Shown piece by piece: positions 2,766 to 25,393 of a stretch of DNA of 27,202 bases. The stretch's first letter is position 1, and every line of letters starts with the position of its first letter. The notes beneath the pieces are model-generated. The model made no database searches. It saw only the letters and a list, made by a program, of their open reading frames with translations, and was not told where the DNA came from. Both the position numbers and the translations under genes were made by a program. Source of the stretch: a virus; IMG/VR virus record IMGVR_UViG_3300006916_000301, positions 1-27,202 of that record. The stretch is one strand, 5' to 3'.

Positions 2766-3713
2766 TCACCGGCCAATTTGTTTTCTTAGTAAGATGTGTT
2801 CTATCGAATTGTGAATACGCTCGGCTGATGCAAATTTCAATTGTTGCGGTTGCATTCCAGCCGCACGCATAGCCATATTTTGGTTTGCGAGATTGTATCG
2901 GTCTGTTTGGTCTTTACTTTGCTGGTTAGCCTGTCGTCTTGCGCCATATCCCGTTTGCCCCATATTTGCTGTCAATCCCATTGACAATACATCGGCAACC
3001 TTTCCACCAAATGAACGGTTCTTCATCCATGATTGCTGGTCGCCTCCCTTGCCTCTTGCCAGTGCGGCGGCATCGGCACCAAAGGCCATTTGATTAGCGG
3101 CATTTTGCATTTGGTTGCCCCCTGCGGCTGGTGCTGGTGCGCCACCTTGTTGTGCTGGTGGTGCTGGTGGATTTTGTGCTGGTGGATTTTGTGCTGGTGG
3201 ATTTTGTCCACCACCTTGTTGTGCTGGTGGTGCTGGTGGATTTTGTGCTGGTTGTTGCCCTCCACCAAACATACCAAGTCCGGGAATATGCCCTTGTGGT
3301 GCGGGTGCTGGTGCTGGGTTTTGCCCTCCACCACCTTGTGGTGCTGGTGGGTTTTGTGCTGGTGGGTTTTGTGCGGCTGGTGTTGGATTACCAACTGCGG
3401 CATTCATCGCACCCAGCCTCTTATTATCTCTTGCCAATCTTCGCTCGTCACCGACTTTATTAGCATAGTTTTCACGGCTAAGAACATTCCCTGCCTCATC
3501 CTTGAATTTTGCTTGTGCGTCGGGTGTTAATTGGTCGTATTGACCTCTTGCCTTTCGTTCAGCATTTGCATCACCTAAACGCTGAAAAGCCCCAGCAGTT
3601 TGCTGAATTGGGTTCCTCATAAAATCCTTAAATCCTTTGTCAACCGCATCTCGCTCGGCTATCATTCGTGCCCTTGCGAGCCTGTCTGCGCTAAATTCAT
3701 TATGCTTTCTCAC
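2766..3713 (-). CDS. Pro/Asn/Gln-repeat protein of unknown function, 315 aa
   Basis: Not recognised. The start is GTG at 3713, overlapping the previous gene's TGA by 4 bases (GTGA), with AGGTGG upstream. Residues 1-95 are charged and helical (DRLARARMIAERD...). Residues of about 105-205 are a repeat tract built from NPPAQ/NPPAP and PPAQQGGG units, encoded by tandem DNA repeats. Residues 210-315 are Gln/Ala/Met-rich and contain a glycine-rich segment (GGKVADVLSMGLTANMGQ). The composition suggests an extended or disordered linker between two helical ends. Its position between other low-complexity proteins and terL suggests a structural or morphogenesis role, which is inference only. Confidence 0.8.
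   Translation of the reverse strand: MRKHNEFSADRLARARMIAERDAVDKGFKDFMRNPIQQTAGAFQRLGDANAERKARGQYDQLTPDAQAKFKDEAGNVLSRENYANKVGDERRLARDNKRLGAMNAAVGNPTPAAQNPPAQNPPAPQGGGGQNPAPAPAPQGHIPGLGMFGGGQQPAQNPPAPPAQQGGGQNPPAQNPPAQNPPAPPAQQGGAPAPAAGGNQMQNAANQMAFGADAAALARGKGGDQQSWMKNRSFGGKVADVLSMGLTANMGQTGYGARRQANQQSKDQTDRYNLANQNMAMRAAGMQPQQLKFASAERIHNSIEHILLRKQIGR
3130..3375. repeat. Tandem short repeats encoding NPPAQ-type peptide repeats
   Basis: On the plus strand a 15-base unit (gctggtggattttgt) occurs three times in tandem around 3159-3208. A larger 42-base block beginning ccaccttgttgtgctgg is repeated exactly at about 3142-3183 and 3211-3252, a 69-base spacing. Degenerate copies (gctggtgggttttgt) follow at about 3345-3375. 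All keep the reading frame of the minus-strand gene, so this is a coding minisatellite. It produces long mirror ORFs on the other strand. Confidence 0.85.
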
Positions 3714-9430: not shown

Positions 9431-10122
9431 TCCATCATCTCCTTGAACGCATCATCGTATTGACCTTTTCCACCACCAATTCCCATAGCCCTCATGGCTC
9501 TTAGATTATCGGCATAATTCATATCCAGCCTGTCGTTATGCACACGGATCGCTTCTTCTAATGGTATTTCTTCTGTGCCCATTAGTCCGGCTAAATCATC
9601 CATAGTTATGGAAAATCCACCCATAGGTATCATACCCATTCTCTTACCTGTTTCATTAGGATTTTCACCCTCTAAGTGAATATCCATTCCATAAGGATTT
9701 TTAGCATCAATTACCCCTCCAACACCTTCGGAATTTATCATGTAAAATTCACCATTAGGTGCTTGCACTACAAACTGATCTCCATGTGAAACACTTGGCT
9801 TTGACGACCATCCATCCCTATCACGATATGGTTTAGCCATATCCATCATAGGGTAGCCATCTTCATCAACATACCCAGCATCCACAAATTTATTGTATGT
9901 TTCATCATCCATTCCCATATCCGCAAATGGGTGTCGCATTCGTGGCACTTCGTATGTTCCTTCATTCATCTGTGCCAATACATTATCGTGGAACCTTTGG
10001 GCAAATTCTTGGAGTCTATCGGGGTCAAGCCTACGCATCATAATGTTTGACGGCTCTCTATTCCCATGAACGCCCCTGCGTTTGCGTAAAGTCCAACCAA
10101 TATCAAACGCTTTATTGTCCAT
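9427..10122 (-). CDS. Tagged hypothetical protein, 231 aa
   Basis: The ATG at 10122 is chosen because it puts the shared motif at the very N-terminus (MDNKAFDIGWTLRKR) and leaves only an 11-base overlap with the upstream gene. An upstream ATG at 10218 would overlap by over 100 bases. The body is acidic and Met/Asp/Gly-rich (HPFADMGMDDETY, MGMIPMGGFSITMDDLAGLMG) and resembles no enzyme family I recognise. It is a member of the tagged set by motif only. Confidence 0.8.
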   Translation of the reverse strand: MDNKAFDIGWTLRKRRGVHGNREPSNIMMRRLDPDRLQEFAQRFHDNVLAQMNEGTYEVPRMRHPFADMGMDDETYNKFVDAGYVDEDGYPMMDMAKPYRDRDGWSSKPSVSHGDQFVVQAPNGEFYMINSEGVGGVIDAKNPYGMDIHLEGENPNETGKRMGMIPMGGFSITMDDLAGLMGTEEIPLEEAIRVHNDRLDMNYADNLRAMRAMGIGGGKGQYDDAFKEMME

Positions 10123-10825
10123 CTTCAAGCACCCCCGCATCGGCCAATGCCTTACGCATAACACGCCATTCTTCGGGCGATTTCTCGGAAAAATGTGCTT
10201 GTATGACAGTGAGGACACTGACCTGTTCGTTAGAACCTACGCTGTCTAACTTTTCAAGGTATTCCCCAATCTCACCCAAAGTGTCACGAATTTCACGGTG
10301 AAGTTTTACTGCCGTGTCAAGACCCTTGTAATCAAGTGCGCCAGTTTCCTGTTGTTCCTCACGCATTAAGTCAACATGGTCATTGAACAAGGTGTTCAAA
10401 CGCTGTAAATTGTTTTCAGTTTGGCGCATAGCGGTTCTTGCACTATCTATCCGTGCTGGCAACATCTCCACAGTCACTTCACGCTGAATAATTGGTGTGG
10501 TGTGATTTTCCATGTGTTGTGATAAAGCAGTGGTTGTGATGTCTAACTCGGTAGCCATATCTTCAATTGAAACAATGTGATTAAGCACAGCCTGTTCGAT
10601 GTTGGCTCTTTCGGGGTGTGTGCATACAGGGCATTCGCTGTTGCTATTGTTGTGGTAATCACCCGAATGCCTACGCATGTGCCTATGTGCAGTGCCCTCC
10701 GGCCATTCTTGACTACGATCTAATTCTTCGACCTCAAGCGTTCCTAAACGAATCATTCTTTCGTAATTATCACGCTGTGGGTGCTGACAGAATGGACAAT
10801 TGGCTCTTGTCCTACGCCCCGTCAT
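10112..10825 (-). CDS. Two-zinc-finger/HTH protein, candidate small terminase subunit, 237 aa
   Basis: Two related N-terminal modules are visible. The first has CPFCQHPQRDNYERMI followed by an EGTAHRHMRRH segment (residues 10-53). The second has CPVCTHPERANIEQAV followed by SIEDMATELDITTTALSQHMENH (residues 65-108). Each pairs a Cys-x2-Cys/His zinc site with a helix-turn-helix-like region ending in His. Residues 120-215 are coiled-coil-like (RQTENNLQRLNTLFNDHVDLM...). An N-terminal DNA-binding region plus a central oligomerising coil is the organisation of terminase small subunits, and the gene is in the terL operon, but not adjacent to it. A transcription regulator is the main alternative. 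Confidence 0.8.
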   Translation of the reverse strand: MTGRRTRANCPFCQHPQRDNYERMIRLGTLEVEELDRSQEWPEGTAHRHMRRHSGDYHNNSNSECPVCTHPERANIEQAVLNHIVSIEDMATELDITTTALSQHMENHTTPIIQREVTVEMLPARIDSARTAMRQTENNLQRLNTLFNDHVDLMREEQQETGALDYKGLDTAVKLHREIRDTLGEIGEYLEKLDSVGSNEQVSVLTVIQAHFSEKSPEEWRVMRKALADAGVLEDGQ

Positions 10826-10847: not shown

Positions 10848-11057
10848 TTATTTCATTTTTGACTTTTTTGGTGTGTGAACACCGCAGTAAGCGGTTCCAC
10901 GCTTTGGGTGGTTCTTACATGGTTGACCGTCTTTTTTGGTCGCTTGACACACCTTCGGTGCTTCGTGTTTAACCACTGGTCTTTTGGGTATTTCCACTAC
11001 TGCATACGCTTGTGGTGGCGGGGCTACTATTCGCCCGTTAATACCGAAAGGAAGCAT
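10848..11057 (-). CDS. DUF5763-like zinc-binding small protein, 69 aa
   Basis: The C-terminal half has CQATKKDGQPCKNHPKRGTAYCGVH, with the Cys-x8-Cys then YCGVH pattern typical of DUF5763-like small modules found in phages and bacteria. The N-terminus is proline-rich. The start at ATG 11057 overlaps the preceding gene by 20 bases. The gap to the next gene is 22 bases. The function is unknown; nucleic acid binding through a zinc knuckle is plausible. Confidence 0.78.
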   Translation of the reverse strand: MLPFGINGRIVAPPPQAYAVVEIPKRPVVKHEAPKVCQATKKDGQPCKNHPKRGTAYCGVHTPKKSKMK

Positions 11058-11292
11058 ACTGGCGGATTGCTATTGTTCCTGTCAATAGCAAACCAAAAAA
11101 CATAGCCATTACTGCACTTGTTCCCAAAGCCGGACCTTTCCATACTAATACCACTAAAGAAAACAGAATAAAGGCGATAATGTAAATCATTGTCGCACTT
11201 TCCACAATCATTTTCTTTGGACTCAATATATCCAATGTTGCCGATGAAATTGAAACCTCTCCTTGTATTGCCGACTCGTCGTTTTCTCCCAT
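11038..11292 (-). CDS. Two-pass membrane protein, 84 aa
   Basis: The ATG at 11292 is preferred over GTG at 11307 because GAGTGATAAT lies immediately before it. The N-terminal 30 residues are soluble and acidic. Two hydrophobic helices follow: MIYIIAFILFSLVVLVW, and TSAVMAMFFGLLLTGTIAI after a short turn. The C-terminus is RQYASFRY. Small size, two membrane spans and late-operon location are compatible with a holin-like role, but archaeal virus holins are poorly defined and no family is recognised. Confidence 0.8.
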   Translation of the reverse strand: MGENDESAIQGEVSISSATLDILSPKKMIVESATMIYIIAFILFSLVVLVWKGPALGTSAVMAMFFGLLLTGTIAIRQYASFRY

Positions 11293-11296
11293 ATTA

Positions 11297-11566
11297 TCAC
11301 TCTCCACTTACATTAGGCGGTGCGTCTTTATCTCCGGAAACATAAGGCCGATCATGACCTACTTTCCTACCAAAGTATCGCATCCCTGCTTTTGATTTAG
11401 ATTGAGGGTCAAGCGGGCGTTTTGCTCGACCCATTGTCGGGTCAAATTTTCCACTTGACGGGTTTTGAGGGTTTCTATCCGCTTGTAGCGGTTTAGCCGT
11501 TTCAAAATGCGCCATTGGTTCATAATTCTTCAATATCGCCCAACCGATTTCCATAGCCCTATTCAT
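11297..11566 (-). CDS. Small tagged basic protein, 89 aa
   Basis: ATG at 11566 follows TTGTGATAAT, where the upstream gene's stop overlaps the Shine-Dalgarno. The N-terminus MNRAMEIGWAILKNYEP is a variant of the shared motif with Met, Glu, Ile and Gly at the variable positions. The rest is basic and Pro/Gly-rich (PSSGKFDPTMGRAKRPLDPQ) and probably extended. No domain is recognised. It is one of the smallest tagged proteins, with little beyond the tag and a flexible tail. Confidence 0.82.
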   Translation of the reverse strand: MNRAMEIGWAILKNYEPMAHFETAKPLQADRNPQNPSSGKFDPTMGRAKRPLDPQSKSKAGMRYFGRKVGHDRPYVSGDKDAPPNVSGE

Positions 11567-11570
11567 ATTA

Positions 11571-12224
11571 TCACAATCCTACTGCCGCACCTTTAGCGGC
11601 CATATTCACACCTTGCCCCATAGTGGCACCGAAACCACCGTTTTGATGCACTTGATTACCAATAATGCCACCAAGCAGGTTGCCGAAGAAACCGGGCTGG
11701 TTTTGGGTCATGGTGTTCATCATCATACCTTGCTGGTGTGCGGCAAGGAACATTTGTAATTGTTGTTGGTTTGCATTCAATACATTCTGTGCCGCACTTT
11801 GGGCTGTCTGTAATGTCAAAGCAAGATTTTCTTGCGACATTGTAGCCATCTCGCTTGGCATTGAACCTGCGTCAAGAGTTAGTTTATTATCTTCTAACTT
11901 GAATGAAACATTGTTGAAAAATTCTTTGATTGACAATTGGACAATTTCACCGACCAAATTTAGAACCAAAGCCATGTTTTGTGATACTACAAAATTTGAA
12001 ACTGGGTCATACATGGCTAACAATTGAGATGTCGCTACGATAGGATCGTTAGCGGCTTGTTGCATCATAGGGTTCTGTGCCTGTTGCATCATGCCCATAG
12101 CACCCATGTTGTTGTTCATTCCCATCATGTTGCCACCAAATCCTTGCTGTTGAGCCGCAATTGTTGGCGCACCAAATTGTTGTGCTGGCTGTGTCTTATT
12201 TCCTCCTAATCCAAAAAATCCCAT
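11571..12224 (-). CDS. Gly/Met/Gln-rich hypothetical protein, 217 aa
   Basis: The start is taken as ATG 12224, with GGGTGAT six bases before it; ATG 12230 and GTG 12233 are also in frame. The N-terminus MGFFGLGG leads into a Gln/Met/Asn low-complexity region (GGNMMGMNNNMGAMGMMQQ). Residues 70-160 look ordered and helical or beta (NFVVSQNMALVLNLVGEIVQLSI, NLALTLQTAQSAAQNVL). The C-terminal 50 residues are glycine-rich and apolar (FFGNLLGGIIGNQ ... AAKGAAVGL) and could associate with a membrane. No family is recognised; a minor virion component is a guess. Confidence 0.8.
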   Translation of the reverse strand: MGFFGLGGNKTQPAQQFGAPTIAAQQQGFGGNMMGMNNNMGAMGMMQQAQNPMMQQAANDPIVATSQLLAMYDPVSNFVVSQNMALVLNLVGEIVQLSIKEFFNNVSFKLEDNKLTLDAGSMPSEMATMSQENLALTLQTAQSAAQNVLNANQQQLQMFLAAHQQGMMMNTMTQNQPGFFGNLLGGIIGNQVHQNGGFGATMGQGVNMAAKGAAVGL

Positions 12225-12229
12225 GTTCA

Positions 12230-13138
12230 TCACCCTTGTTTTGCCGCTATTGGTTCTTGCGGTGTCAAATTTTGTTGCGTTTGCATCATAGCATTTGCTA
12301 TGTTATTACCTTGATTCATTTGTTCTAACTGCAAGGCTCTCATATCGAATGTGACCGTGACCAAATCAGCAACCCCCGTAACCGGATTAACATGCTGATT
12401 CAACACTACACCTTTACTGTATTGGGCATCTTGCTGTATCATTTGAAAGAACGGTGCGTATTTTGCCAAAGATTCGGGTGTTGACCTATTCTTTGCCGAC
12501 GATTTACCACCAAGACCCGGCACTTTCAAGAATCGTGTGCCCTTTGCTACAATTTTACCAAACCCTTCATCCTCCATTTCATGTTCCTCTAACATGCAAC
12601 GCAGGGTGTGGTAAATGTGCAAGTGTGCTGGACAAAGTGTGCTATTCATTTCATCTCCGTGATCTCCATGCGTGCGTGCATGTGGCTTTCTTGCTTGTCC
12701 GGTATCTTCGTCAAACCAATATATATCAGCCAAAGATAAACCGGTTTTCTCATCAACAATATGGTTGTATGCGTTATCACCTTCAAGGAAACGCCTAACA
12801 TCAACACCACAGCAAGCACATTCGTGTGCGGCGTTGTATCTGTAAATTTTGAATAGGCCAAGATTGTATGATGGTGGGCGTAATGCCTTTCTCATCTTTT
12901 TGATATTCTTTTTTCTTGCCTTTCGTGGGTTCTTAGGGTTAGTTACCAACTTCAACTCAACTGTTGGGATTAACGATTCTCCTTCAACACCCCCTGTTGA
13001 ACCAGCACTTGCCATTTCGGCTCTTTGTTGTGCTTTCAACATGTCCACTGAAATGCCAGTGTGCATGGCAAGAACATTCAACTCATCATCGGTAAGACCC
13101 TTCAAAGACATGCCCCCGCCAAATGGATTTATACGCAT
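12230..13138 (-). CDS. Putative zinc-binding HNH-like protein, 302 aa
   Basis: ATG at 13138 is preceded by GGCGGTGAGAG. A central region has CACCG, then YNHIVDEKTG, then NSTLCPAHLHIYH. The order Cys-x2-Cys, (N/D)H-x-V, Asn-x3-Cys-x2-His is like HNH endonuclease folds in outline, although the usual second Cys pair is replaced by His. Flanking regions are a basic segment (NPRKARKKNIKKMRKALRPP) and a Gln-rich tail. HNH nucleases are often encoded near terminase genes and help packaging. The call is tentative, and a purely structural zinc site is equally possible. Confidence 0.75.
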   Translation of the reverse strand: MRINPFGGGMSLKGLTDDELNVLAMHTGISVDMLKAQQRAEMASAGSTGGVEGESLIPTVELKLVTNPKNPRKARKKNIKKMRKALRPPSYNLGLFKIYRYNAAHECACCGVDVRRFLEGDNAYNHIVDEKTGLSLADIYWFDEDTGQARKPHARTHGDHGDEMNSTLCPAHLHIYHTLRCMLEEHEMEDEGFGKIVAKGTRFLKVPGLGGKSSAKNRSTPESLAKYAPFFQMIQQDAQYSKGVVLNQHVNPVTGVADLVTVTFDMRALQLEQMNQGNNIANAMMQTQQNLTPQEPIAAKQG

Positions 13139-13193: not shown

Positions 13194-13922
13194 TTAAATT
13201 AAATTTATTGTGTGGATAACTGCTTCTTCAACCCGTAAGCCAAACTGCGCTGATATTGCCTCCACATTTGTAGCCACTGCCGACTTTCGCAATCTTCGCA
13301 TATCATCTTGAAAAGGTGCAACCATAGGGTGTTGTCGTTTGAGTCCGGCATCCCATATTGCTTGTGACTGACTATCCCACCATACATCCATTTTGTTTAA
13401 CAATAAACACACTACACTGGGTTTGTATTTCTTCGCACGCTTCTTCATAGATCTGCTAAATGTTGTCGGAAACTTGTGATTAACAATAATATCTGTAAGA
13501 TATTTGAAACCCGCTACTGCTTCTTGCATAGCAGGTTCCGACCATGCTATTCTATCATCAACTACAAAGAAAATGATGTTTGCTTTTCGCTTTACCATGT
13601 CCTCCGCCCACATATTCCAGTATTGACTTTGACCGCCTATATCGCTTGAAGTGATGGGCACTCTATCCCCTTTGTATCTAACCTGCTTTTTTGTAGCGTG
13701 AGGCATTTGAAACTTACCGTGTTTCACAGCGTGTGTTGTTCGTAATTCTAAAGGAATTGGGTCAATATCACCCGGAACAGTAAGATATTGGTCAAGTGTT
13801 GTTTTACCTGCCAATGAAGGACCGTATATTGCTACTTTATGGGGTCGCAATACTCTATACACATAGGTTGCTATTTGCGCTGAACCCATCAGCAGGTGTC
13901 CAGCAAACATCCATGTTGCCAT
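13194..13922 (-). CDS. Ras/Arf-like small GTPase, 242 aa
   Basis: The GTPase signature motifs are in order. G1/P-loop GPSLAGKTT is at residues 34-42, G3 DIGGQ at 94-98, G4 NKMD at 176-179, and a G5-like EAISAQ at about 222. The DxGGQ form is typical of the Arf/SR-beta/Ras superfamily. The catalytic Gln equivalent is present. Residues 1-26 (MATWMFAGHLLMGSAQIATYVYRVL) are apolar and could anchor it to a membrane. The segment of about 145-167 is basic. Two small membrane proteins lie directly upstream. The role in a virus is unknown; membrane remodelling, assembly or host interference are conceivable. The GTPase fold is convincing, the subfamily is not settled. Confidence 0.85.
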   Translation of the reverse strand: MATWMFAGHLLMGSAQIATYVYRVLRPHKVAIYGPSLAGKTTLDQYLTVPGDIDPIPLELRTTHAVKHGKFQMPHATKKQVRYKGDRVPITSSDIGGQSQYWNMWAEDMVKRKANIIFFVVDDRIAWSEPAMQEAVAGFKYLTDIIVNHKFPTTFSRSMKKRAKKYKPSVVCLLLNKMDVWWDSQSQAIWDAGLKRQHPMVAPFQDDMRRLRKSAVATNVEAISAQFGLRVEEAVIHTINLI

Positions 13923-13928
13923 TCACAA

Positions 13929-14150
13929 TCACTCGCCCCTGATCCATTTCCATACACCATGCGGGCTTATTTCTCCCCATACATCTAATCCTAAAAGAAT
14001 GAAGAATGACAAACTTGCACCAATAAAGAAAGCCAATATAGATTTTACAGTCCATGCCGCCCTTTCCATTCTTCGGTCATAAGCATTCTCGGCAAGTATC
14101 GCTGACATGGCTTCCGCCTGTCTTTCTTGTGCTGTGTTGAAAGGCCACAT
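13929..14150 (-). CDS. Single-pass membrane protein, 73 aa
   Basis: The ATG at 14150 is chosen because AGGTGGTG precedes it and it avoids overlap with the upstream gene. A longer in-frame start at 14216 would overlap by 53 bases. It begins MWPFNTAQERQAEAMSAIL, a helical charged stretch. One hydrophobic helix follows (SILAFFIGASLSFFILLGLDVW, given here as two parts: SILAFFIGASL and SFFILLGLDVW), and then a short basic tail (KWIRGE). It sits between a two-span membrane protein and the small GTPase, 6 bases from the latter, which suggests these three act together at a membrane. Confidence 0.8.
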   Translation of the reverse strand: MWPFNTAQERQAEAMSAILAENAYDRRMERAAWTVKSILAFFIGASLSFFILLGLDVWGEISPHGVWKWIRGE

Positions 14151-14163
14151 GCTACCGCACCAC

Positions 14164-14634
14164 CTATTGCTGTTCAGTTTCAGTCTTAGAATCTTCTCCG
14201 TCATTAGGTAAGCCAAATGTCTGTTGATTTTGTGGGCTTGTTACCTGTTGCCAAGCGTTTTGCTTATACATTTCAATATCCTGTTGCATTTGGTAGTCCT
14301 TTCTCATACGGCGTTGTTGTAGTCGCATTTGATTTCGATGCCACTTATCATATCGCCCTTCTTGTGCAAATTCAGCACGCAGGGCAAGTGAATCACGGAT
14401 TCCACCCACATGAAACAATACCATAGCCACACACAGGAAACCAAATGCAATCAAACCATATTGTAATCCCATTTCAGCCGGACTTGCTTCGGGCAAATAC
14501 CAATCTAAGTGAGAAACGGTTACTGAAACACCAGTCAACAATGATTGCCATAGTAACATAGCGATTAGATTAATGTCAATTCTATTTCCATCATCGGGCA
14601 TTTGCCACGGTGGCACTCTTTGTGGTTGATTCAT
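14164..14634 (-). CDS. Membrane protein with C-terminal coiled coil, 156 aa
   Basis: Starts at ATG 14634, one base after the stop of the RHH gene. Two hydrophobic helices lie at about 24-40 (IDINLIAMLLWQSLLTGV) and 55-78 (GLIAFGFLCVAMVLFHVGG). The C-terminal half is a charged coiled coil rich in Arg, Gln and Met (RNQMRLQQRRMRKDYQMQQD), ending in an acidic tail. No family is recognised. Co-transcription with another membrane protein and a GTPase is the main clue to its context. Confidence 0.8.
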   Translation of the reverse strand: MNQPQRVPPWQMPDDGNRIDINLIAMLLWQSLLTGVSVTVSHLDWYLPEASPAEMGLQYGLIAFGFLCVAMVLFHVGGIRDSLALRAEFAQEGRYDKWHRNQMRLQQRRMRKDYQMQQDIEMYKQNAWQQVTSPQNQQTFGLPNDGEDSKTETEQQ

Positions 14635-14635
14635 T

Positions 14636-14773
14636 TTATTCCGCCCCCTTCTTATCTTCAAAATATTTCTTTAGCACAAAATTGACGAATGAGGATTTAG
14701 ACTCACGCCCCCTTTCCGCTTCTAATTTTGCGAACAGATCGTCCGGCATAACTACTGAAACATGTCGGCTCAT
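14636..14773 (-). CDS. Ribbon-helix-helix transcriptional regulator, 45 aa
   Basis: I found this by translating the gap by hand. ATG at 14773, TAA at 14636-14638, 45 residues. The N-terminus SRHVSVVMPDDLFAKLEAE is the beta-strand and first helix of a CopG/Arc/MetJ-type ribbon-helix-helix fold. RGRESKSSFVNFVLKKYFED provides the turn (S-K-S-S) and second helix. Such proteins dimerise and insert the paired strand into DNA. It is the first gene of the leftward late operon and faces the plus-strand gene at 14842, so it may control one or both divergent promoters in the 68-base gap. Confidence 0.85.
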   Translation of the reverse strand: MSRHVSVVMPDDLFAKLEAERGRESKSSFVNFVLKKYFEDKKGAE

Positions 14774-14841: not shown

Positions 14842-15354
14842 ATGCCATCAGCAAACATGCCCGATGCAGTGAAAGCCATGCGTTCATATTATTTTGTAAT
14901 AAACGCAATACCAAACAGCCCCGAAGTTTTATCTTCATGGATTCAAAGACACACAAATGAGGGGTTGGCGGCTGATTTTGATTACAGGGCGGCAATCGCT
15001 GTATTGCACCATTTTGGACATCCGTTATACTCAAGCAATTCAAACCACCCATCGGGCACTACATCGTGGTGCAATCTCATGACTGGGGCTGAAACCATAC
15101 TACAAGACGAACAGGCTTGGATAAATGACCAATTAGAAATCGCTAACATCACACGACCACAGCGTTTGTTTGATTCCGATATTACATGGTTGAACGCTTG
15201 GGGAACGGCCAACGGTGTTCCACAAAACCTTGAAACGGCCTTCTTGGTCAATATGATAATTCAGCAATTGCGAACATGTGAGGGTAGCAACGGTGCTACT
15301 GGTGCTGGTGGTATATCGCATACAGAACGCAATCCGCCAACTGAATTGCCTTAA
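14842..15354 (+). CDS. Hypothetical protein on the opposite strand, 170 aa
   Basis: Not recognised. One of only two plus-strand genes. The ATG at 14842 follows a TATA-like element at leaderless distance; a second Met is at codon 6. The sequence is soluble, with several Trp and His residues (SSWIQRHTNEGLAADFDYRA, AIAVLHHFGHPLY, ITWLNAWGTANG) and a Gly/Ser/Thr-rich tail. No membrane segment and no catalytic pattern are seen. It does not carry the shared tag. Its stop overlaps the convergent gene's stop in TTAA. Separate promoter and orientation suggest early or separately regulated expression. Confidence 0.8.
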   Translation: MPSANMPDAVKAMRSYYFVINAIPNSPEVLSSWIQRHTNEGLAADFDYRAAIAVLHHFGHPLYSSNSNHPSGTTSWCNLMTGAETILQDEQAWINDQLEIANITRPQRLFDSDITWLNAWGTANGVPQNLETAFLVNMIIQQLRTCEGSNGATGAGGISHTERNPPTELP

Positions 15355-16499
15355 ATGACCGAATCGGAACGCATTTGATTGAATATCTCATTCAATGCCT
15401 TTTCCCTCATACTCGGAGGCAATTGACGCAGGGCGTTAGTGTTATCGAGATAAACGGTTTTTGCCCCCCTTCGATAACAAGCACGGCATTTCAAATTACC
15501 AGTTAATGGATCGAACACCTTGTTACACTTTTTAGGGTTACCGGGTATTGTCGCTGGACAAATGTTTGTTTCACCATCGGTTGGTAGTTTATCATATCCG
15601 GTCATTCCGAGCATGGGTTTTCCGTCAATGCCTTTTAATTGAGATAAAAAGCCAATCGGAACATCTCGGTCGGGCACAACATTACTTGTTACCTTTAAGT
15701 TACTATCGGGTTTTACTTGTTCGGGTAACATTTTACCCGGTAATGACATTTGTAATGCTAAGTTTGGCGCAATAGCATCCGGCTCAAAACCTCTTGCTTC
15801 AAGGAAGTCATACAAGTATGGTATCTGTCTTGTTGAACCCCATATTGTTGTCATTGGGTTTCTTCGTGCTATTTGGTCAAGCATAGCAAATGCACCCGGT
15901 CCTCTTGCATCACCGGCTGAAAATCCTCTCGCCACTACATCATCGGTCGGCCTTTCACGGGCTAACATGGCTCTTGGTGTCAAAGTTTCACTGTATGCGG
16001 CGGCTATTGCTTCGGGATGAGTTAGCATACGGTCAAGATTCCGCCATTGTCCTAATTGCACATTGTTGTAAAGATAATTGCCCTTACAAGCATAACAGTG
16101 CCCACATGCCATTTTCGGATTATCTCTATCTGCGAAAATACATGCTAAAGGTGTCGAATCCATCACGGAAGGACCAGCCATTTTTTCCGGAGAACCATAG
16201 TGCCCAAATTCCATCGGGGCAATTTGTTGTAAATTTTCCGGCAAATCTTGTCTTATATCAGCATATACTGGTAAGTCGTAATCCATTTCAAGCGGCATGT
16301 CTATTAAGCGTGGTTGACCGTTGGGATAAAGATATTCATTAAACTTATCCGGATTATTTTCTATAAATTCACTAATCTTGACTTTGGGCGGTTTTCCTTC
16401 GCCAGTCCATCGGTATTTATCCCATGAGAGCATATCGCCCTCATCACCTACGGCTTTGACTAACAACTTGCCCAACCTGCGAGTTACAGCGTCAATCAA
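15351..16499 (-). CDS. Gp88-like cysteine-cluster phage protein, 382 aa
   Basis: The start is probably TTG 16499, because GGAGG lies seven bases upstream and the TTG overlaps the previous TGA. A GTG at 16529 is in frame. A Cys cluster C-x11-C-x2-C-x2-C followed by KGNYLYNNVQLGQWRNLDRM matches the 'gene product 88' family of phages. It is followed by GFSAGDARGPGAFAMLDQIA and TTIWGSTRQ, equivalent to the family's SGDF...A-YT segment. A second C-terminal cluster has CPATIPGNPKKC and LKCRAC. The family's activity is not established; the Cys clusters suggest metal or Fe-S binding. It is the last gene of the minus-strand group and converges on 14842-15354. Confidence 0.82.
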   Translation of the reverse strand: MIDAVTRRLGKLLVKAVGDEGDMLSWDKYRWTGEGKPPKVKISEFIENNPDKFNEYLYPNGQPRLIDMPLEMDYDLPVYADIRQDLPENLQQIAPMEFGHYGSPEKMAGPSVMDSTPLACIFADRDNPKMACGHCYACKGNYLYNNVQLGQWRNLDRMLTHPEAIAAAYSETLTPRAMLARERPTDDVVARGFSAGDARGPGAFAMLDQIARRNPMTTIWGSTRQIPYLYDFLEARGFEPDAIAPNLALQMSLPGKMLPEQVKPDSNLKVTSNVVPDRDVPIGFLSQLKGIDGKPMLGMTGYDKLPTDGETNICPATIPGNPKKCNKVFDPLTGNLKCRACYRRGAKTVYLDNTNALRQLPPSMREKALNEIFNQMRSDSVI

Positions 16500-17656
16500 A
16501 ACAAACCCTCCTGTTTCAGCACAGCCCACCCACTTTCAAAGGCGTTTTGGGGTTCCGACATCATAAAGTCCATCAGATCAGTTTGCTTGTTCTCCTTCGG
16601 CAAGAAACGACCATACCCATGATTTTGTAGTAATTCATTGATTGAATGGCCATCCATGTCGGGTATGTTAGCCACACCCACCATCTCTAACTTATCTCCA
16701 CGAAGTGATGGGTTAGCACCGCTATTGTCCGGCCTGTTTATGATTGTAGTGTCCAACCCGATGTCTTTGTATTGTTCAATGGGCGCAATACTGTCAAAAG
16801 CCATGACTGGTTGGCCTTCTTGTATTCTTTCTTCTAATTGCCTCAATGTCGGTCTTGGGTCAAACCCAACCCCGTATGAACCCGGCTCACCCGAATAGGG
16901 CGGGTCGTTTATGAGCAATTTGTTGTTGTCAATATCCCATTCAGCCAGTGCTTCGGCACCATCTCCCTGTCTAACATTTACATTTTGTAATGGATCTCGG
17001 TAATTCAACAGGCTTTCCGAAGTGGGTAAGTTTCGCATTGTTGGCACATCGGGAGGATTGCTTGGGAATTGCATACCTTCAAACGGGGTTTTTGCATAAC
17101 GAACCTGTCCTCTCCACCCTGCTCTTTTGTTCCTGTAAAGTGCTAAAGCGTAGCGTTGACGCTGTTCATCAGTCAAATAAGGTCTATCCCTCAACAAAGC
17201 GGTGAAATGGGTAAGTGTATCATCGGGTATTGATGCCCCAGCCCGTCTTTGGGTCATGTTCGGACCTCGTATGTATCTATTGAAGTAATCCTTCAAGGCT
17301 TGGTCGTCAAGTCCTTGTAGCATTGACCAATCCACAGTCATTCCTTCATTACCTTGATTTTTGACAGCATCCACTAACATGGCAGTGCCAAAGTCCAATT
17401 CATTGTAATCACTGGCACCTTGTGGTAAAACATTGAGAATATCATTGGCCGGACCGCCAAATGGCGTTTGAATACCGGTAGCACCAGCCCTTGCCAGTGC
17501 ATTTCTTTGTAGCATACGGTAGTGAGGCTTATTTTTTGAACCGGTATGGCGAACAATAGGACTCATGCCCAATTTACCAGTCAAGTCGGCACGCATAGCG
17601 TCATATTGGTCTTGCGCTATGCGCCTACCACCTTGACCGCCCTTGAAACGAATCAT
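16496..17656 (-). CDS. D12-type (Dam-like) adenine DNA methyltransferase-like protein with C-terminal tag, 386 aa
   Basis: ATG at 17656 overlaps the preceding stop as ATGA. DPPY at residues 251-254, preceded by LLIN, is the catalytic motif IV of N6-adenine methyltransferases. Residues 172-200 (ALYRNKRAGWRGQVRYAK, then FEGMQFPSN) match the D12 segment normally written as NRTGFNGLWRYN...FNVPFG. The AdoMet-binding motif I near residue 66 (PFGGPANDILNV) is divergent. The C-terminal 20 residues contain NAFESGWAVLKQEG, a shared motif placed at the end instead of the start. It may protect viral DNA, or modify host DNA if delivered in the virion. The divergent motif I leaves activity uncertain. Confidence 0.83.
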   Translation of the reverse strand: MIRFKGGQGGRRIAQDQYDAMRADLTGKLGMSPIVRHTGSKNKPHYRMLQRNALARAGATGIQTPFGGPANDILNVLPQGASDYNELDFGTAMLVDAVKNQGNEGMTVDWSMLQGLDDQALKDYFNRYIRGPNMTQRRAGASIPDDTLTHFTALLRDRPYLTDEQRQRYALALYRNKRAGWRGQVRYAKTPFEGMQFPSNPPDVPTMRNLPTSESLLNYRDPLQNVNVRQGDGAEALAEWDIDNNKLLINDPPYSGEPGSYGVGFDPRPTLRQLEERIQEGQPVMAFDSIAPIEQYKDIGLDTTIINRPDNSGANPSLRGDKLEMVGVANIPDMDGHSINELLQNHGYGRFLPKENKQTDLMDFMMSEPQNAFESGWAVLKQEGLF

Positions 17657-18078
17657 TCTTCCTCGCCCCTGTCGCTATGTGCCCAGTTTTCAGCGATGCC
17701 CCACGGTCCGGTATTCATGTTTTGTGCGGCTTGCTTATGTGCTTCTTCAACGGGGTATTCGACAACATTCGGTTCTCTTATTTGCCCAAGAGCGTAATAC
17801 ACATCGGCTTGCATGGTAAAACCGGTTGATGGGTCATAAACCATCTTTTTACCATCTTCGCCTGTGAATGTTGTAAAAGCGTGTGCATAAGAACGCCCTG
17901 CTAACGGACCGAACAATGGTGTCACTTCGGCATGGACTAAGTTATGGTCGGGATTCATGCAAATATGACCGTATGCTGTATCATAGCAATTGCCATATTT
18001 GTTTTCATCGGGCACATCATCAAGATCGTCTTGCTTTATCAAAGTCCATGCGGCTTCAAAAGCATGACTTGGCGACAC
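17653..18078 (-). CDS. Tagged putative Cys-His-Asp peptidase-like protein, 141 aa
   Basis: The GTG start at 18078 follows GGGGTGAGTAA, in the same stop/Shine-Dalgarno arrangement as several neighbours. The shared motif HAFEAAWTLIKQDD is at residues 5-18. The body contains NCYDTAYGHI (Cys31), LVHAEVTP, SYAHAFTTF (His66), MVYDPSTG (Asp82) and YYALGQI, and later VVEYPVEEA and GPW. This arrangement matches a phage protein family with papain- or transglutaminase-like Cys-His-Asp order that I recall only by pattern. Catalytic function is inferred from residue order alone. Confidence 0.82.
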   Translation of the reverse strand: MSPSHAFEAAWTLIKQDDLDDVPDENKYGNCYDTAYGHICMNPDHNLVHAEVTPLFGPLAGRSYAHAFTTFTGEDGKKMVYDPSTGFTMQADVYYALGQIREPNVVEYPVEEAHKQAAQNMNTGPWGIAENWAHSDRGEEE

Positions 18079-19736: not shown

Positions 19737-21298
<1,562 letters not shown>

Positions 21299-21302
<4 letters not shown>

Positions 21303-21706
21303 CCTTGAACCATACCACGCTGTTTCATTTTATCCCAAAAACCAACGGCATCGGGGTTCATTCTCCCCACTTGAACGGGCATATCGCCATATTCCGCAAT
21401 AGCATCGTCAATCATTTCTTGGAGATAGGCTTCGGACATTTTTTTGCCTCTTAGGGCTTCTGCAATTTCAAAATGGTCAAGGAATATGCGCCCATGTTCG
21501 GGTCGCATTGTTCCTCTTGCTTCTGTATCTTTAGATTGCCAATAAAACGGTTCACCCGTGCTGGTTTCATCATTCGGCCATTCCAATGACACCATTCTCA
21601 TATCGGGCATCATAGTAAAGCGAGGATCCCTACCACTGGATATATCTTCGGGATAATCATGGATAGGGGCTTTTAGCAATTGCCAAGCGGTGTCAAATGC
21701 GCTCAT
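21299..21706 (-). CDS. Tagged GNAT-like acetyltransferase domain protein, 135 aa
   Basis: ATG at 21706 overlaps the previous stop (ATGA). Residues 1-13 are the shared tag (MSAFDTAWQLLKA). Residues 74-135 look like the C-terminal half of a GNAT fold. IFLDHFEIAEALRGKKMSEA corresponds to the strand and acetyl-CoA loop, and PDAVGFWDKMKQRGMVQG to the final helix and strand. The loop is RGKKMS instead of the usual (Q/R)-x2-G-x-(G/A), so cofactor binding may be impaired. Its last 15 residues are nearly the same as those of 23548-23988, which is a paralogue. The stop shares TTAA with the convergent thermosome gene. Confidence 0.83.
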
Positions 21707-22019: not shown

Positions 22020-22791
22020 CGCTCATCATCCCATCCAAATCTTTAGCCGCTTGAGGATTGATTCGTCTTATGAAATCCTTTTCATCATCATCCATCATTG
22101 ACCAATTATCCAACAGTGTTTCAAAGTCCATATCCCTCAAGTGGTCTGTGAACGCTGTTTCCGTTGAATAAAGAAATTTATCGGGCAAAGCGACACGACC
22201 GGACATCTGATCGCGTAACCTGTTCAAAGCCCCAGCCATGTGTTCATCTCTTGCCACATCAGTGTGGTAAAAGCCGGTGGTGCCGACAGGGTTGACTGGT
22301 TTTTGCATTCGTGGTGCTACTTCATCACCATCGTCATTGTATGACCAACCCCTGTATGCTTGCTTTTCTTCTTCGGGTGTCATATCGTAATCGGGTAGCA
22401 TCGAAGCAATCATGGCATACAATTCATCTTCATCCATAAATTCACCACCCATTTCTCCATAATCATCTATGTAACCTTGCGATTGTGGGTCTTGCATGAG
22501 TGGTATGTATTCATCGGGTGGGTTTCGCATTACTTTGATTGCTGGATATGTTTCACGCATTGGTATTGTATCTTCTAAGTCACTAATCTCAATATTAGGA
22601 ACAGCCGAACCATACAGTGCATAGGCCAGTGCTTCGTCAATATCGCCTGTCCAATACCTAAAATCATCATGTATGCGGTCGCCACCGGAATACAACGGCC
22701 TATGCCTTATAGTGCTAATCTTACCGTCATTGGGGTGATAGATGTCGAAGGGTGCTTTGAGTAATGCCCATGCTCTATCAAACGCTGTCAT
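22000..22791 (-). CDS. Tagged protein with possible ADP-ribosyltransferase-like N-terminal region, 263 aa
   Basis: The ATG at 22791 is chosen because it begins with the tag (MTAFDRAWALLKAPF). A longer frame to 22875 would overlap the upstream gene. Residues 33-58 (LYSGGDRI... YWTGDIDEALAYA) resemble the first half of ART folds, in which a (Y/H)-x-G segment is followed by an S/T-x-D...A-x-x-YA strand and helix. The matching catalytic Glu is not assigned. The rest is acidic and Met/Asp-rich. The ART suggestion is weak by itself but gains support from the neighbouring genes. Confidence 0.8.
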   Translation of the reverse strand: MTAFDRAWALLKAPFDIYHPNDGKISTIRHRPLYSGGDRIHDDFRYWTGDIDEALAYALYGSAVPNIEISDLEDTIPMRETYPAIKVMRNPPDEYIPLMQDPQSQGYIDDYGEMGGEFMDEDELYAMIASMLPDYDMTPEEEKQAYRGWSYNDDGDEVAPRMQKPVNPVGTTGFYHTDVARDEHMAGALNRLRDQMSGRVALPDKFLYSTETAFTDHLRDMDFETLLDNWSMMDDDEKDFIRRINPQAAKDLDGMMSDGVNRR

Positions 22792-22792
22792 G

Positions 22793-23545
22793 TCAACCAC
22801 GCACCCTGTCAGCCATCCATTCTCGGATTTTCTTTTGACTATTGCCATACATAGGCAATACATCTTCGGGGTCAATCGCCCGTTGTGTAATTAATTCGTG
22901 CATCATGTCCGTATCATCGGCAATTGAAAGAACACTACTACCGCCAAAAGGGTCTGTTATTTCAAAATTCAAATCCGCCATTCCAACATCAGTAATCTGA
23001 TCCATTCCAATAAGGACATCATCTTCATCACCCATCCAATCTTCAACTGGTTTGTTGAAGTGTCTATACTTGCGAGCCATGATTTCTTTCATTTCGTCAA
23101 GGTAATCCTGATCGTAACCCTCCCAATCTCCTTCATCAGCGTTGTATATTGCTTCTTCCAAGTTTTGATATAAAAAGCCCAACGCATCAGCCGCCCTCAT
23201 GTTACCTGCAATTGTTTCTTTCTTGTATGGTTCCATGTCAATAATAAAATGTCTATCATTTTCTCTATTCATTCCTTGTGCATCCCTTCGGACTCTTAAA
23301 TTGCGTAAATCTTCAAGCAAGAAATCAAGAGGCATACGGTATTCTTCGTTTTCATTATTTGCTATTGGGTGACTAAACACACCGTGTGGGCGATCTAGAA
23401 TTTCGTTATGAGGATGTGTTGCGAGCATTGAATAATCGTGATTGATGTTTGGGTCTATGGGTTCACCGACAGGAACACGACCACGATGCACAGCAAAGCG
23501 TGGCATCTCCTTGAGCAATTGCCATGCTGTATCAAATGCGCTCAT
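22793..23545 (-). CDS. Tagged protein, possible divergent ADP-ribosyltransferase, 250 aa
   Basis: Three ATGs in tandem and a TTG are in frame; ATG 23545 has GGGAGG eight bases upstream and begins MSAFDTAWQLLKEMP. Residues 17-23 (FAVHRGR) could be the nicotinamide-binding strand of an ART fold. GVFSHP near residue 57, and a C-terminal ELITQRAIDPEDVLPMYG, resemble the E-x-x-x-x-x-I-x-P-E/D-x-V/I segment of many phage and toxin ARTs. The centre is acidic and helical. The fold assignment is speculative; membership of the tagged set is clear. Confidence 0.8.
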   Translation of the reverse strand: MSAFDTAWQLLKEMPRFAVHRGRVPVGEPIDPNINHDYSMLATHPHNEILDRPHGVFSHPIANNENEEYRMPLDFLLEDLRNLRVRRDAQGMNRENDRHFIIDMEPYKKETIAGNMRAADALGFLYQNLEEAIYNADEGDWEGYDQDYLDEMKEIMARKYRHFNKPVEDWMGDEDDVLIGMDQITDVGMADLNFEITDPFGGSSVLSIADDTDMMHELITQRAIDPEDVLPMYGNSQKKIREWMADRVRG

Positions 23546-23547
23546 CA

Positions 23548-23988
23548 TCATTCCTCCCAATAGCCTTGTATGATGCCTTCATCTTCCATCTTATCCCAAA
23601 AACCTCTTGACGAAGGTATAACTTCGGTAGCCAAGACCTTTGACGCACGACGCATTGGAGAATACGGATTTTCCTTCAATTCTCTAATATATTGCATCAA
23701 CGCCTCACGACCTTTTCCTTTTCCTCTTATTGCAGGGTGTAATTCAAAGTAAGGAATTTCAGCACCAACATGTGTGCCATCTCCCGTTCTGTAATCCTTA
23801 TCTCGGTGCAACCCCCAAGCCATTGGGCGTTCTTTATCATCAACCCAAAAACTTTCTTCTTCATCAGCCAACTCATGTTCATAAGGGCTAACTGAACCCA
23901 AGACACCACCCCATGCCATCTCCGGTATTTTATCGGAATGAACAAAGGGCATTTTTACCAATTGCCATGCAGTATCAAACGCTGTCAA
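23548..23988 (-). CDS. Tagged GNAT-like acetyltransferase, 146 aa
   Basis: The start is TTG at 23988, with GGAGGGG upstream and TTGA overlap with the previous stop. Residues 1-13 are MTAFDTAWQLVKM. The body matches the GNAT core: IPYFELHPAIRGKGKGREAL at 78-97 contains the acetyl-CoA loop R-G-K-G-K-G (88-93), and TEVIPSSRGFWDKMEDEGII at 121-140 is the C-terminal strand-helix-strand. It is a paralogue of 21299-21706 but with an intact cofactor loop, so this is the likelier active enzyme. GNATs acetylate proteins, small molecules or tRNA-linked targets; the substrate is unknown. Confidence 0.87.
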   Translation of the reverse strand: MTAFDTAWQLVKMPFVHSDKIPEMAWGGVLGSVSPYEHELADEEESFWVDDKERPMAWGLHRDKDYRTGDGTHVGAEIPYFELHPAIRGKGKGREALMQYIRELKENPYSPMRRASKVLATEVIPSSRGFWDKMEDEGIIQGYWEE

Positions 23989-24752
23989 TCATACCCCTCC
24001 AACCAATGTGGCTTACCGTCAACCGTAAGCGTGTTAGGGTTATCCGAAAATGGTTCTAATTCCTCCATTGTTCGTAACCAACTACGGAAACGCATATTAT
24101 TCCAGTATCTTTCATCATCAAAATAATCCAATATCCTTGACACAGGGTGTTGAATCTTTAGTGGGTCTAAGTATTCGGTTTGGAACCCTTCGGCACCAGT
24201 ATTCGGCCAAAAATCAGCCATTGGACCGATTGCTTCAAGATCTATCATGCGACTCTTACCTGCGCTATCAACGGCAAAGTTAGCATTATGCCTATCGGCC
24301 AATAGGTGTGCAAGGGCACGGTCAGCCGTTGCACGGTCGCCTTCGTGGTGTGGCCTCCCAAATACATGGCGCATTTTAGGTTGAATAGTATGAACCGAAG
24401 CCCCGCTACCCATCGGCATCTCGGTTGCTATGGGGTAGCCAATATCTTCAAGGAATTGCAGGGTTTCTATTGTATCGGGGTCAGTCCTCATATCGAAACT
24501 TTCACGGTAGTATGGGTCGTCAACAGGAACCTTGACAACATGCTCATAACTCCACGGATGTTCAAAGACATGGGCTTTCGACCCACTGCCAATAAAACCC
24601 TCCATCTCGGCCTTTGCTTCATCATCATCACTATCCCATTCGTCAATAAATGGCACTTCATCATCTTCAAGGGGTGCTATGTCCTTTACTTCATCACGCC
24701 AGTTAGGCGTGTATCGCTTGAGCAAGGCAAAAGCAGTATCAAACGCCGTCAT
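23985..24752 (-). CDS. Tagged protein-kinase-like protein, 255 aa
   Basis: ATG at 24752 overlaps the upstream stop (ATGA). The tag MTAFDTAFALLKRY has Phe in place of Trp. A glycine-rich loop GSGSKAHVF is at 55-63. VVKV places the ATP-binding Lys at 74. Residues 153-172 (DRHNANFAVD, then SRMIDLE) give a catalytic Asp153, His155, Asn158 and a DLE metal site at 171-173, like the D-x-H-x-x-N ... D of RIO, APH and phage kinases. DLE replaces DFG. Length is short but adequate for a minimal kinase lobe pair. A virion-delivered kinase that phosphorylates host proteins is a reasonable inference, by analogy with phage kinases. Confidence 0.85.
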   Translation of the reverse strand: MTAFDTAFALLKRYTPNWRDEVKDIAPLEDDEVPFIDEWDSDDDEAKAEMEGFIGSGSKAHVFEHPWSYEHVVKVPVDDPYYRESFDMRTDPDTIETLQFLEDIGYPIATEMPMGSGASVHTIQPKMRHVFGRPHHEGDRATADRALAHLLADRHNANFAVDSAGKSRMIDLEAIGPMADFWPNTGAEGFQTEYLDPLKIQHPVSRILDYFDDERYWNNMRFRSWLRTMEELEPFSDNPNTLTVDGKPHWLEGYD

Positions 24753-25393
24753 TCACGCATCACCCGCCTTTCAATTTCTTCAAGACTCAATGTGGGTGAA
24801 TATCCTGTTTCATCAGGATCGTCGTCATACCAAGACAACTTTCGCTTTGGTTCATCTTTAAACGGTAAATCAGCATCTTTGAATGAATCTTGCGCCAGCC
24901 TTTCAAATTCGGGATAACTAATAACACCATCAACATCAAAATCGGTTTGGTGAGCCAGCGACAAAAATTCGGGAGGGATTGTGACATTTGAATACAAATA
25001 ATCACGATAGGTTTCGGGGTGTTCACCTTGTCTTAACGGAAATGATGGGTCAATGCGGATAAGTGCCGGTCGGCTAACATCATCTTGAATATAGGGTGTG
25101 GATAAATTAACACCCGGATTTACTATGCCTTGTTCCTTCGCTTTCCGTCTTTGTGGCATATTTGCCGCCATTATTGCATAAACTTTGGCAAACATAGGTA
25201 TAGATGAAGCAAACACTTTCGGTTTGTCATAGACACCTTTACCGCCAATAAATTTGTTGCTGTTTTCCCAATCACTTGGTTTCAAGCCTTCTTGAAGAAT
25301 GCTCTCAACGCGATCTGATGTAGTGCCATGAAAAGGCATCTTGACTAATTGCCAAGCAGTATCAAACGCTGTTTGGATTTGCGTCATTATCAT
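24749..25393 (-). CDS. Tagged ADP-ribosyltransferase-like protein, 214 aa
   Basis: Starts at ATG 25393 or ATG 25387, both after GGGAGG. The tag TAFDTAWQLVKMP is at residues 8-20. It is followed at once by FHGTTSDRVESILQEGLKPS (21-40), the hallmark (H/Y)-G-T ... I-L-x-x-G-L start of PARP/KptA-type ART folds. VFASSIPMFAKVYAIMAAN (60-78) is the S-x2-x3-A-x-x-YA segment, and VTIPPEFL (137-144) resembles the IPPE strand near the catalytic acid. These enzymes transfer ADP-ribose from NAD to proteins or nucleic acids. Its tag coding region overlaps the 3' end of the preceding gene by about 30 bases. This is the best ART candidate in the window. Confidence 0.87.
   Translation of the reverse strand: MIMTQIQTAFDTAWQLVKMPFHGTTSDRVESILQEGLKPSDWENSNKFIGGKGVYDKPKVFASSIPMFAKVYAIMAANMPQRRKAKEQGIVNPGVNLSTPYIQDDVSRPALIRIDPSFPLRQGEHPETYRDYLYSNVTIPPEFLSLAHQTDFDVDGVISYPEFERLAQDSFKDADLPFKDEPKRKLSWYDDDPDETGYSPTLSLEEIERRVMRE

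What the first reader, a model, noticed from the sequence alone, without database searches (positions are those of the whole stretch)
13194..13922. Ras/Arf-like small GTPase in a viral late operon
Complete G1, G3, G4 and G5-like motifs, an apolar N-terminus, and two adjacent membrane-protein genes. Small GTPases are common in Asgard and other archaea but are seldom reported in archaeal or bacterial viruses. Possible roles are membrane remodelling, egress or control of host trafficking-like processes.
Basis: partly seen in the sequence, partly recalled or inferred. Interest (0 to 1): 0.8.

Follow-up and report, generated by a model that had tools for sequence, protein, structure and literature searches.

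The report
Small GTPase cassette in archaeal viruses
Tailed viruses of marine Poseidoniales archaea all seem to carry their own small GTP-driven switch protein next to two membrane proteins, a kind of gene hardly known outside cells and giant viruses, which may control a late membrane step such as virus release.

Summary
Window 13194-13922 (minus) encodes a 242-aa small GTPase. In 46 aligned homologues G34/G39/K40/T41 (G1), T62 (G2), D94/G97 (G3) and N176/K177/D179 (G4) are invariant, and dN/dS is about 0.05. The AlphaFold model (pLDDT 83) superposes on Arf-family GTPases first (Arf6 Z 16.4, 2.4 A over 161 residues), then Rag/Gtr and Rab. The window protein reaches no curated family cut-off, so it is Arf-like in fold, not a filed Arf.

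It belongs to one lineage of Poseidoniales tailed viruses: 54 viral contigs plus a 106-kb viral contig in a single-cell Poseidoniales assembly. Order is fixed: 2-TM protein, 1-TM protein, GTPase, HNH-like Zn protein, then a packaging region with TerL, portal, protease and capsid on the same strand. The 2-TM gene is present in 53/53 and the 1-TM gene in 54/55 testable loci. All 27 contigs long enough to show it carry the GTPase. Sampled host genomes lack Arf, Roc, ArvA and ArvB matches.

Best guess (inference): a membrane-docked GTP switch that, with the TM proteins, drives or times a late membrane step. Archaeal virus release mostly lacks a known mechanism. Rivals: assembly checkpoint, host control. 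No biochemistry exists. New variant of a known kind.

The parts
13194..13922 (-). small GTPase, 242 aa, G1-G5 motifs, N-terminal apolar helix
   Evidence: 46 homologues with invariant G1/G2/G3/G4 residues; AF2 model pLDDT 83 and VIA Z 16.4 to Arf6; dN/dS about 0.05
13929..14150 (-). 1-TM protein, 73 aa, conserved WPFxTxxERQxEAM motif; stop 6 nt before the GTPase start
   Evidence: family found in 54 of 55 loci; one TM in 37 of 37 called members; start refined
14164..14634 (-). 2-TM protein, 156 aa, conserved NRIDxNLIAMLLWQSLLTG and GLQYGLIxFGFLC helices, charged C-terminus
   Evidence: 53 of 53 loci with enough upstream DNA; two TM in 45 of 48
14636..14773 (-). small ribbon-helix-helix-like protein, 45 aa, first gene of the run; probable regulator
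   Evidence: related ORFs called in 30 loci; window ORF and coordinates; family call from sequence appearance only
12230..13138 (-). HNH-like zinc protein, 302 aa, invariant ECACCGVD and LCPAHLHI motifs
   Evidence: next to the GTPase gene in 55 of 55 loci; motif conservation; HNH assignment is by eye
11571..12233 (-). Q/M/G-rich protein, 220 aa, function unknown
   Evidence: 55 of 55 loci
11038..11307 (-). third small membrane protein, 2 TM, 89 aa
   Evidence: 2 TM in 34 of 37; called in 37 loci
10112..10825 (-). double zinc-knuckle plus coiled-coil protein, TerS candidate, 237 aa
   Evidence: 55 of 55 loci; conserved Cys/His motifs; TerS role is inferred from position and layout

Best explanation
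A virus-encoded, Arf-like GTP switch that acts at the host cytoplasmic membrane late in infection. Shown: complete small-GTPase motif set under strong purifying selection, Arf-like predicted fold, N-terminal helix, fixed linkage to a 2-TM and a 1-TM protein, and placement in the morphogenesis-strand gene cluster of one lineage of Poseidoniales tailed viruses. Inferred: GTP binding releases or exposes the N-terminal helix (as in Arf and as proposed for ArvA), the protein docks on the membrane and on the 1-TM/2-TM partners, and the GTP-bound complex opens, curves or otherwise prepares the membrane for virion release; hydrolysis resets or times it. The host contributes no recognisable equivalent, so the virus brings the whole module.
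For: Invariant G1-G4 in 46 sequences; Arf/Arl/ArfR fill the first 26 ranks of the structural ranking apart from one tubulin-cofactor complex entry, ahead of Rag/Gtr and Rab; dN/dS about 0.05; 2-TM gene 53/53 and 1-TM gene 54/55 directly upstream, the latter 6 nt from the GTPase start in the window; same strand as TerL, portal, protease and MCP; evolves in step with neighbours, Mantel r 0.73-0.93; SAG contig ties the viruses to Poseidoniales; no Arf, OapB, Roc or ArvA matches in the sampled host order. Precedent: the small GTPase ArvA drives vesicle formation in Haloferax (PMC10927574). A 2015 review states that most archaeal viruses lack a known egress mechanism (PMC4456609).
Against: No expression, localisation or biochemical data. 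The N-terminal helix is only moderately hydrophobic, not clearly amphipathic, and missing from the called start in three homologues. The catalytic Gln is Asp, His or Glu in 16 of 46. Genes downstream look like nuclease and packaging genes, so membrane action is not the only reading. Apart from the TM prediction nothing shows what the partners do.
Confidence: 0.4

Rival explanations
1. Assembly or packaging checkpoint: the GTPase acts with the HNH-like protein, the TerS candidate and TerL to time DNA packaging or capsid assembly, and the membrane genes only share its operon.
For: HNH-like protein, Q/M-rich protein and TerS candidate lie downstream in 55/55 loci; TerL, portal, protease and MCP follow on the same strand; closest distance correlation is with the TerS candidate (r 0.93).
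Against: Tightest linkage (6 nt) is to the 1-TM gene; an N-terminal apolar helix is not needed for a soluble packaging factor; no packaging small GTPase family was found in PHROGs.
Confidence: 0.25
2. Host take-over or superinfection exclusion: the GTPase and its membrane proteins alter the host envelope or secretion to keep out competitors or reshape the cell.
For: Two membrane partners; predicted fold like cellular trafficking GTPases; universal in the lineage.
Against: Sits in the morphogenesis-strand cluster and not with variable accessory genes; the sampled host order shows no matching GTPase system to subvert.
Confidence: 0.15
3. Divergent descendant of the archaeal vesiculating GTPase ArvA/OapA, retooled by the virus (an origin hypothesis, compatible with the best explanation).
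For: In the phylum-wide search the weak cellular matches that were read are ArvA-like, several next to OapC, aligned over helix-G1-G2 (residues 14-72); hhalign probability 96% over 53 columns.
Against: G3 is DTPG in ArvA and D[ILVF][GA]G[QDHE] here; the match stops after G2 and the G2 Thr is not in the same place; no OapB or OapC among the ten neighbourhood proteins scanned; no ArvA found in Poseidoniales.
Confidence: 0.15

Closest known systems
Arf/Arl family GTPases, including Asgard ArfR (8oum, 8ouk)
   Same: best structural superposition (Z 15.0-16.4, about 2.5 A over 160 residues), DxGGQ-type G3, NKxD G4, N-terminal helix before the G domain
   Different: 15-23% identity; Pfam Arf score 15.1 against a cut-off of 22.3; no Gly2; insertions between G2 and G3 and around G4; catalytic Gln replaced in a third of sequences
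ArvA/OapA archaeal vesiculating GTPase (Haloferax; PMC10927574)
   Same: N-terminal helix, IYGPxxxGKTTL G1 and IPxExR stretch, archaeal setting, fixed three-gene cassette
   Different: G3 DTPG in ArvA; its partners are OapB and OapC and not TM proteins; cellular, not viral
Ras/Rab/Ran-like GTPases of eukaryotic giant viruses (BFVD hits)
   Same: small GTPase carried by a dsDNA virus
   Different: eukaryotic hosts; annotated as Rab/Ran/Ras-like; not part of a tailed-virus gene cluster
Magrovirales / Adrikavirales, Poseidoniales tailed viruses
   Same: Poseidoniales host, records up to about 108 kb, HK97-type morphogenesis genes, MCP related to Druskaviridae
   Different: no MCM in 14 records and PolB in 4 of 11 virus records, unlike Aoguangviridae as described (PMC10768690); reference genomes not held, so the lineage could not be fixed

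Membership tests
Small GTPase (Ras superfamily-like TRAFAC GTPase) | G1 GxxxxGK[ST] | tested here: met
   G34, G39, K40, T41 invariant in 46
Small GTPase (Ras superfamily-like TRAFAC GTPase) | G2 Thr and G3 DxxG | tested here: met
   T62, D94, G97 invariant
Small GTPase (Ras superfamily-like TRAFAC GTPase) | G4 NKxD and G5 SA-like | tested here: met
   N176, K177, D179 invariant; position 224 Ser in 38 and Ala in 8 of 46
Small GTPase (Ras superfamily-like TRAFAC GTPase) | G-domain fold | tested here: met
   model pLDDT 83; 1000 of 1000 Foldseek-ranked chains at VIA Z 8 or more, top rows small GTPases
Small GTPase (Ras superfamily-like TRAFAC GTPase) | GTP binding and hydrolysis | not testable with these tools
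   needs protein biochemistry
Arf family (PF00025) | Pfam gathering score | tested here: not met
   15.1 bits against 22.3; 30 of 46 members give a weak hit at E 0.1 or better, best 1.6e-4
Arf family (PF00025) | Gly2 for N-myristoylation (eukaryotic Arfs) | tested here: not met
   residue 2 is not Gly in the aligned starts shown; mostly A or S
Arf family (PF00025) | catalytic Gln in G3 | tested here: inconclusive
   Q in 30, D in 12, H in 3, E in 1
ArvA/OapA | G3 DTPG | tested here: not met
   viral D[ILVF][GA]G
ArvA/OapA | linked OapB (PF09846) and OapC (PF09845) | tested here: not met
   none among the ten proteins scanned at E 1, including those directly around the GTPase
MglA | linked MglB roadblock protein | tested here: not met
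   no roadblock hit among the ten proteins scanned at E 1
SR-beta (PF09439) | Pfam gathering score and N-terminal TM | tested here: inconclusive
   8 of 46 members hit weakly, best E 0.011; N-terminal helix below TM threshold
Magrovirales | Caudoviricetes morphogenesis genes, Poseidoniales host | tested here: met
   TerL, portal, protease, MCP, tape measure in G010; SAG contig with MCP/TerL/portal/protease at 62-80%
Magrovirales | virus-encoded replisome with PolB and MCM, as described for Aoguangviridae | tested here: inconclusive
   PolB in 4 of 11 virus records, MCM in 0 of 14; records may be incomplete

The most novel reading that the evidence does not exclude
A family of small GTPases private to one lineage of archaeal tailed viruses works with virus-encoded TM proteins as a GTP-timed egress machine, a release mechanism unlike holin-endolysin and unlike the SIRV2/STIV1 pyramids.
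Probability: 0.25. Interest if true: 0.9.

Novelty: new variant of a known kind. Interest (0 to 1): 0.68.

Why it matters
Small GTPases are thought of as cellular regulators, and among viruses the structure library used here shows them in giant viruses of eukaryotes. A core, universally conserved small GTPase in tailed viruses of marine archaea gives a specific, testable candidate for the open question of how archaeal viruses leave cells without a holin-endolysin system. It also adds an Arf-like branch outside cellular genomes, in viruses whose presumed hosts show no such GTPase in the searches run.

Tried and rejected
Non-GTPase P-loop NTPase: rejected, G4 invariant and the fold is a small GTPase. 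Recent acquisition from the host: not supported, no match in 193 of 194 Poseidoniales genomes, and the one match is a viral contig. The weak phylum-wide hits (residues 14-72) were first suspected to be ABC transporters; reading them showed ArvA-like GTPases beside OapC. One further hit, L083, is an Arf-like cellular protein beside a transposase-like ORF and matches only residues 75-126. Loci with the 545-aa neighbour but no GTPase (five) are contigs that end before the GTPase position. HVTV-1, whose MCP is a relative, has no match to the GTPase profile in 54-102 kb. Magrovirus and Adrikavirales reference genomes (OR863078, ON649702, PP497040) are not held, nor the two main Poseidoniales-virus papers. 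No held paper names both a GTPase and magroviruses. A sequence tree with Arf, Rag, MglA and SR-beta was not built: divergence is too great and the sequences were not at hand. SR-beta and MglA do not appear in the 50 rows, which excludes nothing. The sigma-70 promoter scan was uninformative.

Full report
What is there. The ORF at 13194-13922 on the minus strand encodes 242 aa. Close relatives were found in IMG/VR, and a profile of them reached 54 viral loci and one cellular record. In a 46-sequence alignment (identity to the window protein 34-93%) the residues that define a GTPase are invariant: G34, G39, K40, T41 (G1), T62 (G2), D94 and G97 (G3), N176, K177, D179 (G4), as is R124 after strand 4; the G5-like site is [IMV][SA][AST]. 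The G3 glutamine is Q in 30, D in 12, H in 3 and E in 1. Pairwise dN/dS is about 0.03 to 0.05 where dS can be estimated. This is a real, selected gene.

Fold and family. AlphaFold2 with the 46-sequence alignment gave pLDDT 83, pTM 0.82. Foldseek against the PDB lists only small GTPases among its top 50. Realignment by VIA-align 2 puts Arf/Arl/ArfR first (Arf6 Z 16.4, 2.4 A, 161 residues), with a tubulin-cofactor complex entry (9edt) inside that group, followed by Asgard RagA-like and Gtr (14.5-14.0) and Rab5 (14.1). The gap between Arf and Rab is about two Z units, so Arf-like is a description of fold and not a proven membership. By sequence the window protein reaches no curated cut-off: Pfam Arf 15.1 against 22.3, and Arf, Roc, Ras, MMR_HSR1, EF-Tu and Gtr1_RagA models all touch members weakly. 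NCBIfam's generic small_GTP domain touches 21 of 46, best 2.3e-5. PHROGs and 50,697 phage genomes have no counterpart (only a weak match of four members to phrog_124). The viral structural neighbours are GTPases of giant viruses.

Whose gene. The closest long relative (93% identical GTPase, an 86-kb record) holds TerL, portal, S78 protease, an SU10/HVTV-type major capsid protein, a tape measure protein and family B polymerase. Its capsid protein is 31-32% identical to Druskaviridae haloviruses. The only cellular-assembly match is a 106-kb contig of a Poseidoniales single-cell genome, AG-422-I20, whose readable part carries MCP, TerL, portal and protease at 62-80% identity to that virus; the first 72 kb are withheld as N. 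This is good evidence for Poseidoniales as host. These viruses resemble magroviruses, but MCM was not found in 14 records and PolB only in 4 of 11 virus records, so the exact order is left open; magrovirus and Adrikavirales reference genomes were not available.

Gene order. Clustering of ORFs around 55 GTPases gives one order: small RHH-like protein, 2-TM protein, 1-TM protein, GTPase, HNH-like zinc protein, Q/M-rich protein, a further 2-TM protein, a short Cys/His protein, a double zinc-knuckle coiled-coil protein (TerS candidate), then large conserved proteins and, in the long record, TerL and the capsid genes on the same strand. A profile search of the upstream DNA finds the 2-TM gene in 53 of 53 loci and the 1-TM gene in 54 of 55; the remaining locus (L052) has another ORF with a hydrophobic stretch there. 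In the window the 1-TM stop is 6 nt from the GTPase start and the 2-TM stop 13 nt from the likely 1-TM start. Of contigs with the capsid gene and at least 21 kb of DNA on the proper side, all 27 are in the GTPase list (my own cross-check of contig names and positions). GTPase distances correlate with those of five neighbours (Mantel r 0.73-0.93, none of 999 permutations as high), as expected of a vertically inherited core gene.

Host side. In Poseidoniales the profile matches only the viral contig (1 of 194); Arf (0/60), OapB/ArvB (0/60), Roc (0/40) and ArvA (no match beyond a P-loop stretch in 97) are not detected. These were the families tested; other GTPases may exist, and the viral protein itself also fails the Arf model, so sensitivity to very divergent relatives is limited. 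In the wider phylum, weak matches, mostly to residues 14-72, are found in 60 further genomes. Those read are ArvA-like GTPases, several beside an OapC-type protein. The shared stretch is the N-terminal helix, GIYGPxxxGKTTL and IPxExR (hhalign probability 96%, 53 columns). ArvA has G3 DTPG, a differently placed G2 Thr and other partners, so I treat ArvA as a functional parallel and a possible distant relative.

How it probably works. ArvA, in the same domain of life, has an N-terminal helix proposed to enter the membrane on GTP binding; its loss cuts vesicle production about threefold and excess raises it (PMC10927574). The viral protein has the same layout, and its closest gene partners are membrane proteins. 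Most archaeal viruses lack an identified egress mechanism, and no holin had been identified in isolated archaeal viruses according to a 2015 review (PMC4456609). The economical hypothesis is therefore a GTP-dependent membrane step late in infection, with the 2-TM and 1-TM proteins as docking sites or effectors (40%). The chief rival is an assembly or packaging checkpoint, since the genes downstream look nuclease- and packaging-related (25%). Localisation, timing and nucleotide binding are untested.

Novelty. The chemistry and fold are known; a small GTPase as a core gene of tailed viruses of archaea was not found in the families, genomes or papers searched. I rate it a new variant of a known kind. 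Interest 0.68: the gene is solid and its context specific, but the mechanism is unproven.

Noticed in passing
window 10084-10110, 11528-11557, 16514-16543, 18034-18063, 21671-21700, 22756-22785, 23510-23539, 23953-23982, 24717-24746, 25340-25369, 26043-26072, 27161-27190 (all minus): A recurring short peptide, consensus AFDTAWxLLK, stands at or near the N-terminus of about ten otherwise different proteins and at the C-terminus of one (16496-17656). It looks like a shared targeting, docking or protease-recognition tag, perhaps for packaging proteins into the virion.
   Followed up: partly
window 19737-21302 (+): Group II chaperonin (thermosome)-like gene on the opposite strand, with relatives in 12 of the loci. 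Assignment is from sequence appearance.
   Followed up: no
window 15351-16529 (-): Pfam GP88 protein (E 1.5e-13); the cluster it belongs to is present in 47 loci, often in several tandem copies.
   Followed up: no
window 12230-13138 (-): HNH-like zinc protein with invariant ECACCGVD and LCPAHLHI motifs, beside the GTPase in all 55 loci and without a significant PHROG or Pfam assignment.
   Followed up: partly
window 2766-3713 (-): Low-complexity protein with repeated PAQNPPAQ-like units.
   Followed up: no
GTPase residue 98 in alignment A2: The catalytic Gln of G3 is replaced by Asp in 12, His in 3 and Glu in 1 of 46 homologues, suggesting altered hydrolysis or GAP use in some members.
   Followed up: partly
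L083: A Thermoplasmatota protein with a strong Arf match (E 9.5e-13), with DVGGE, DHR and NKYDVW motifs like the viral GTPase, beside a transposase-like ORF and an unassigned 257-aa ORF.
   Followed up: no
virus records G002-G012, G468-G470: Long relatives of this virus show no detectable MCM and most show no family B polymerase, unlike Aoguangviridae as described, so the lineage may be separate from them.
   Followed up: partly
L056 / contig CACGHY010000002.1: A 106-kb viral contig with the cassette sits in a Poseidoniales single-cell assembly, giving direct host linkage; its first 72 kb are withheld.
   Followed up: yes
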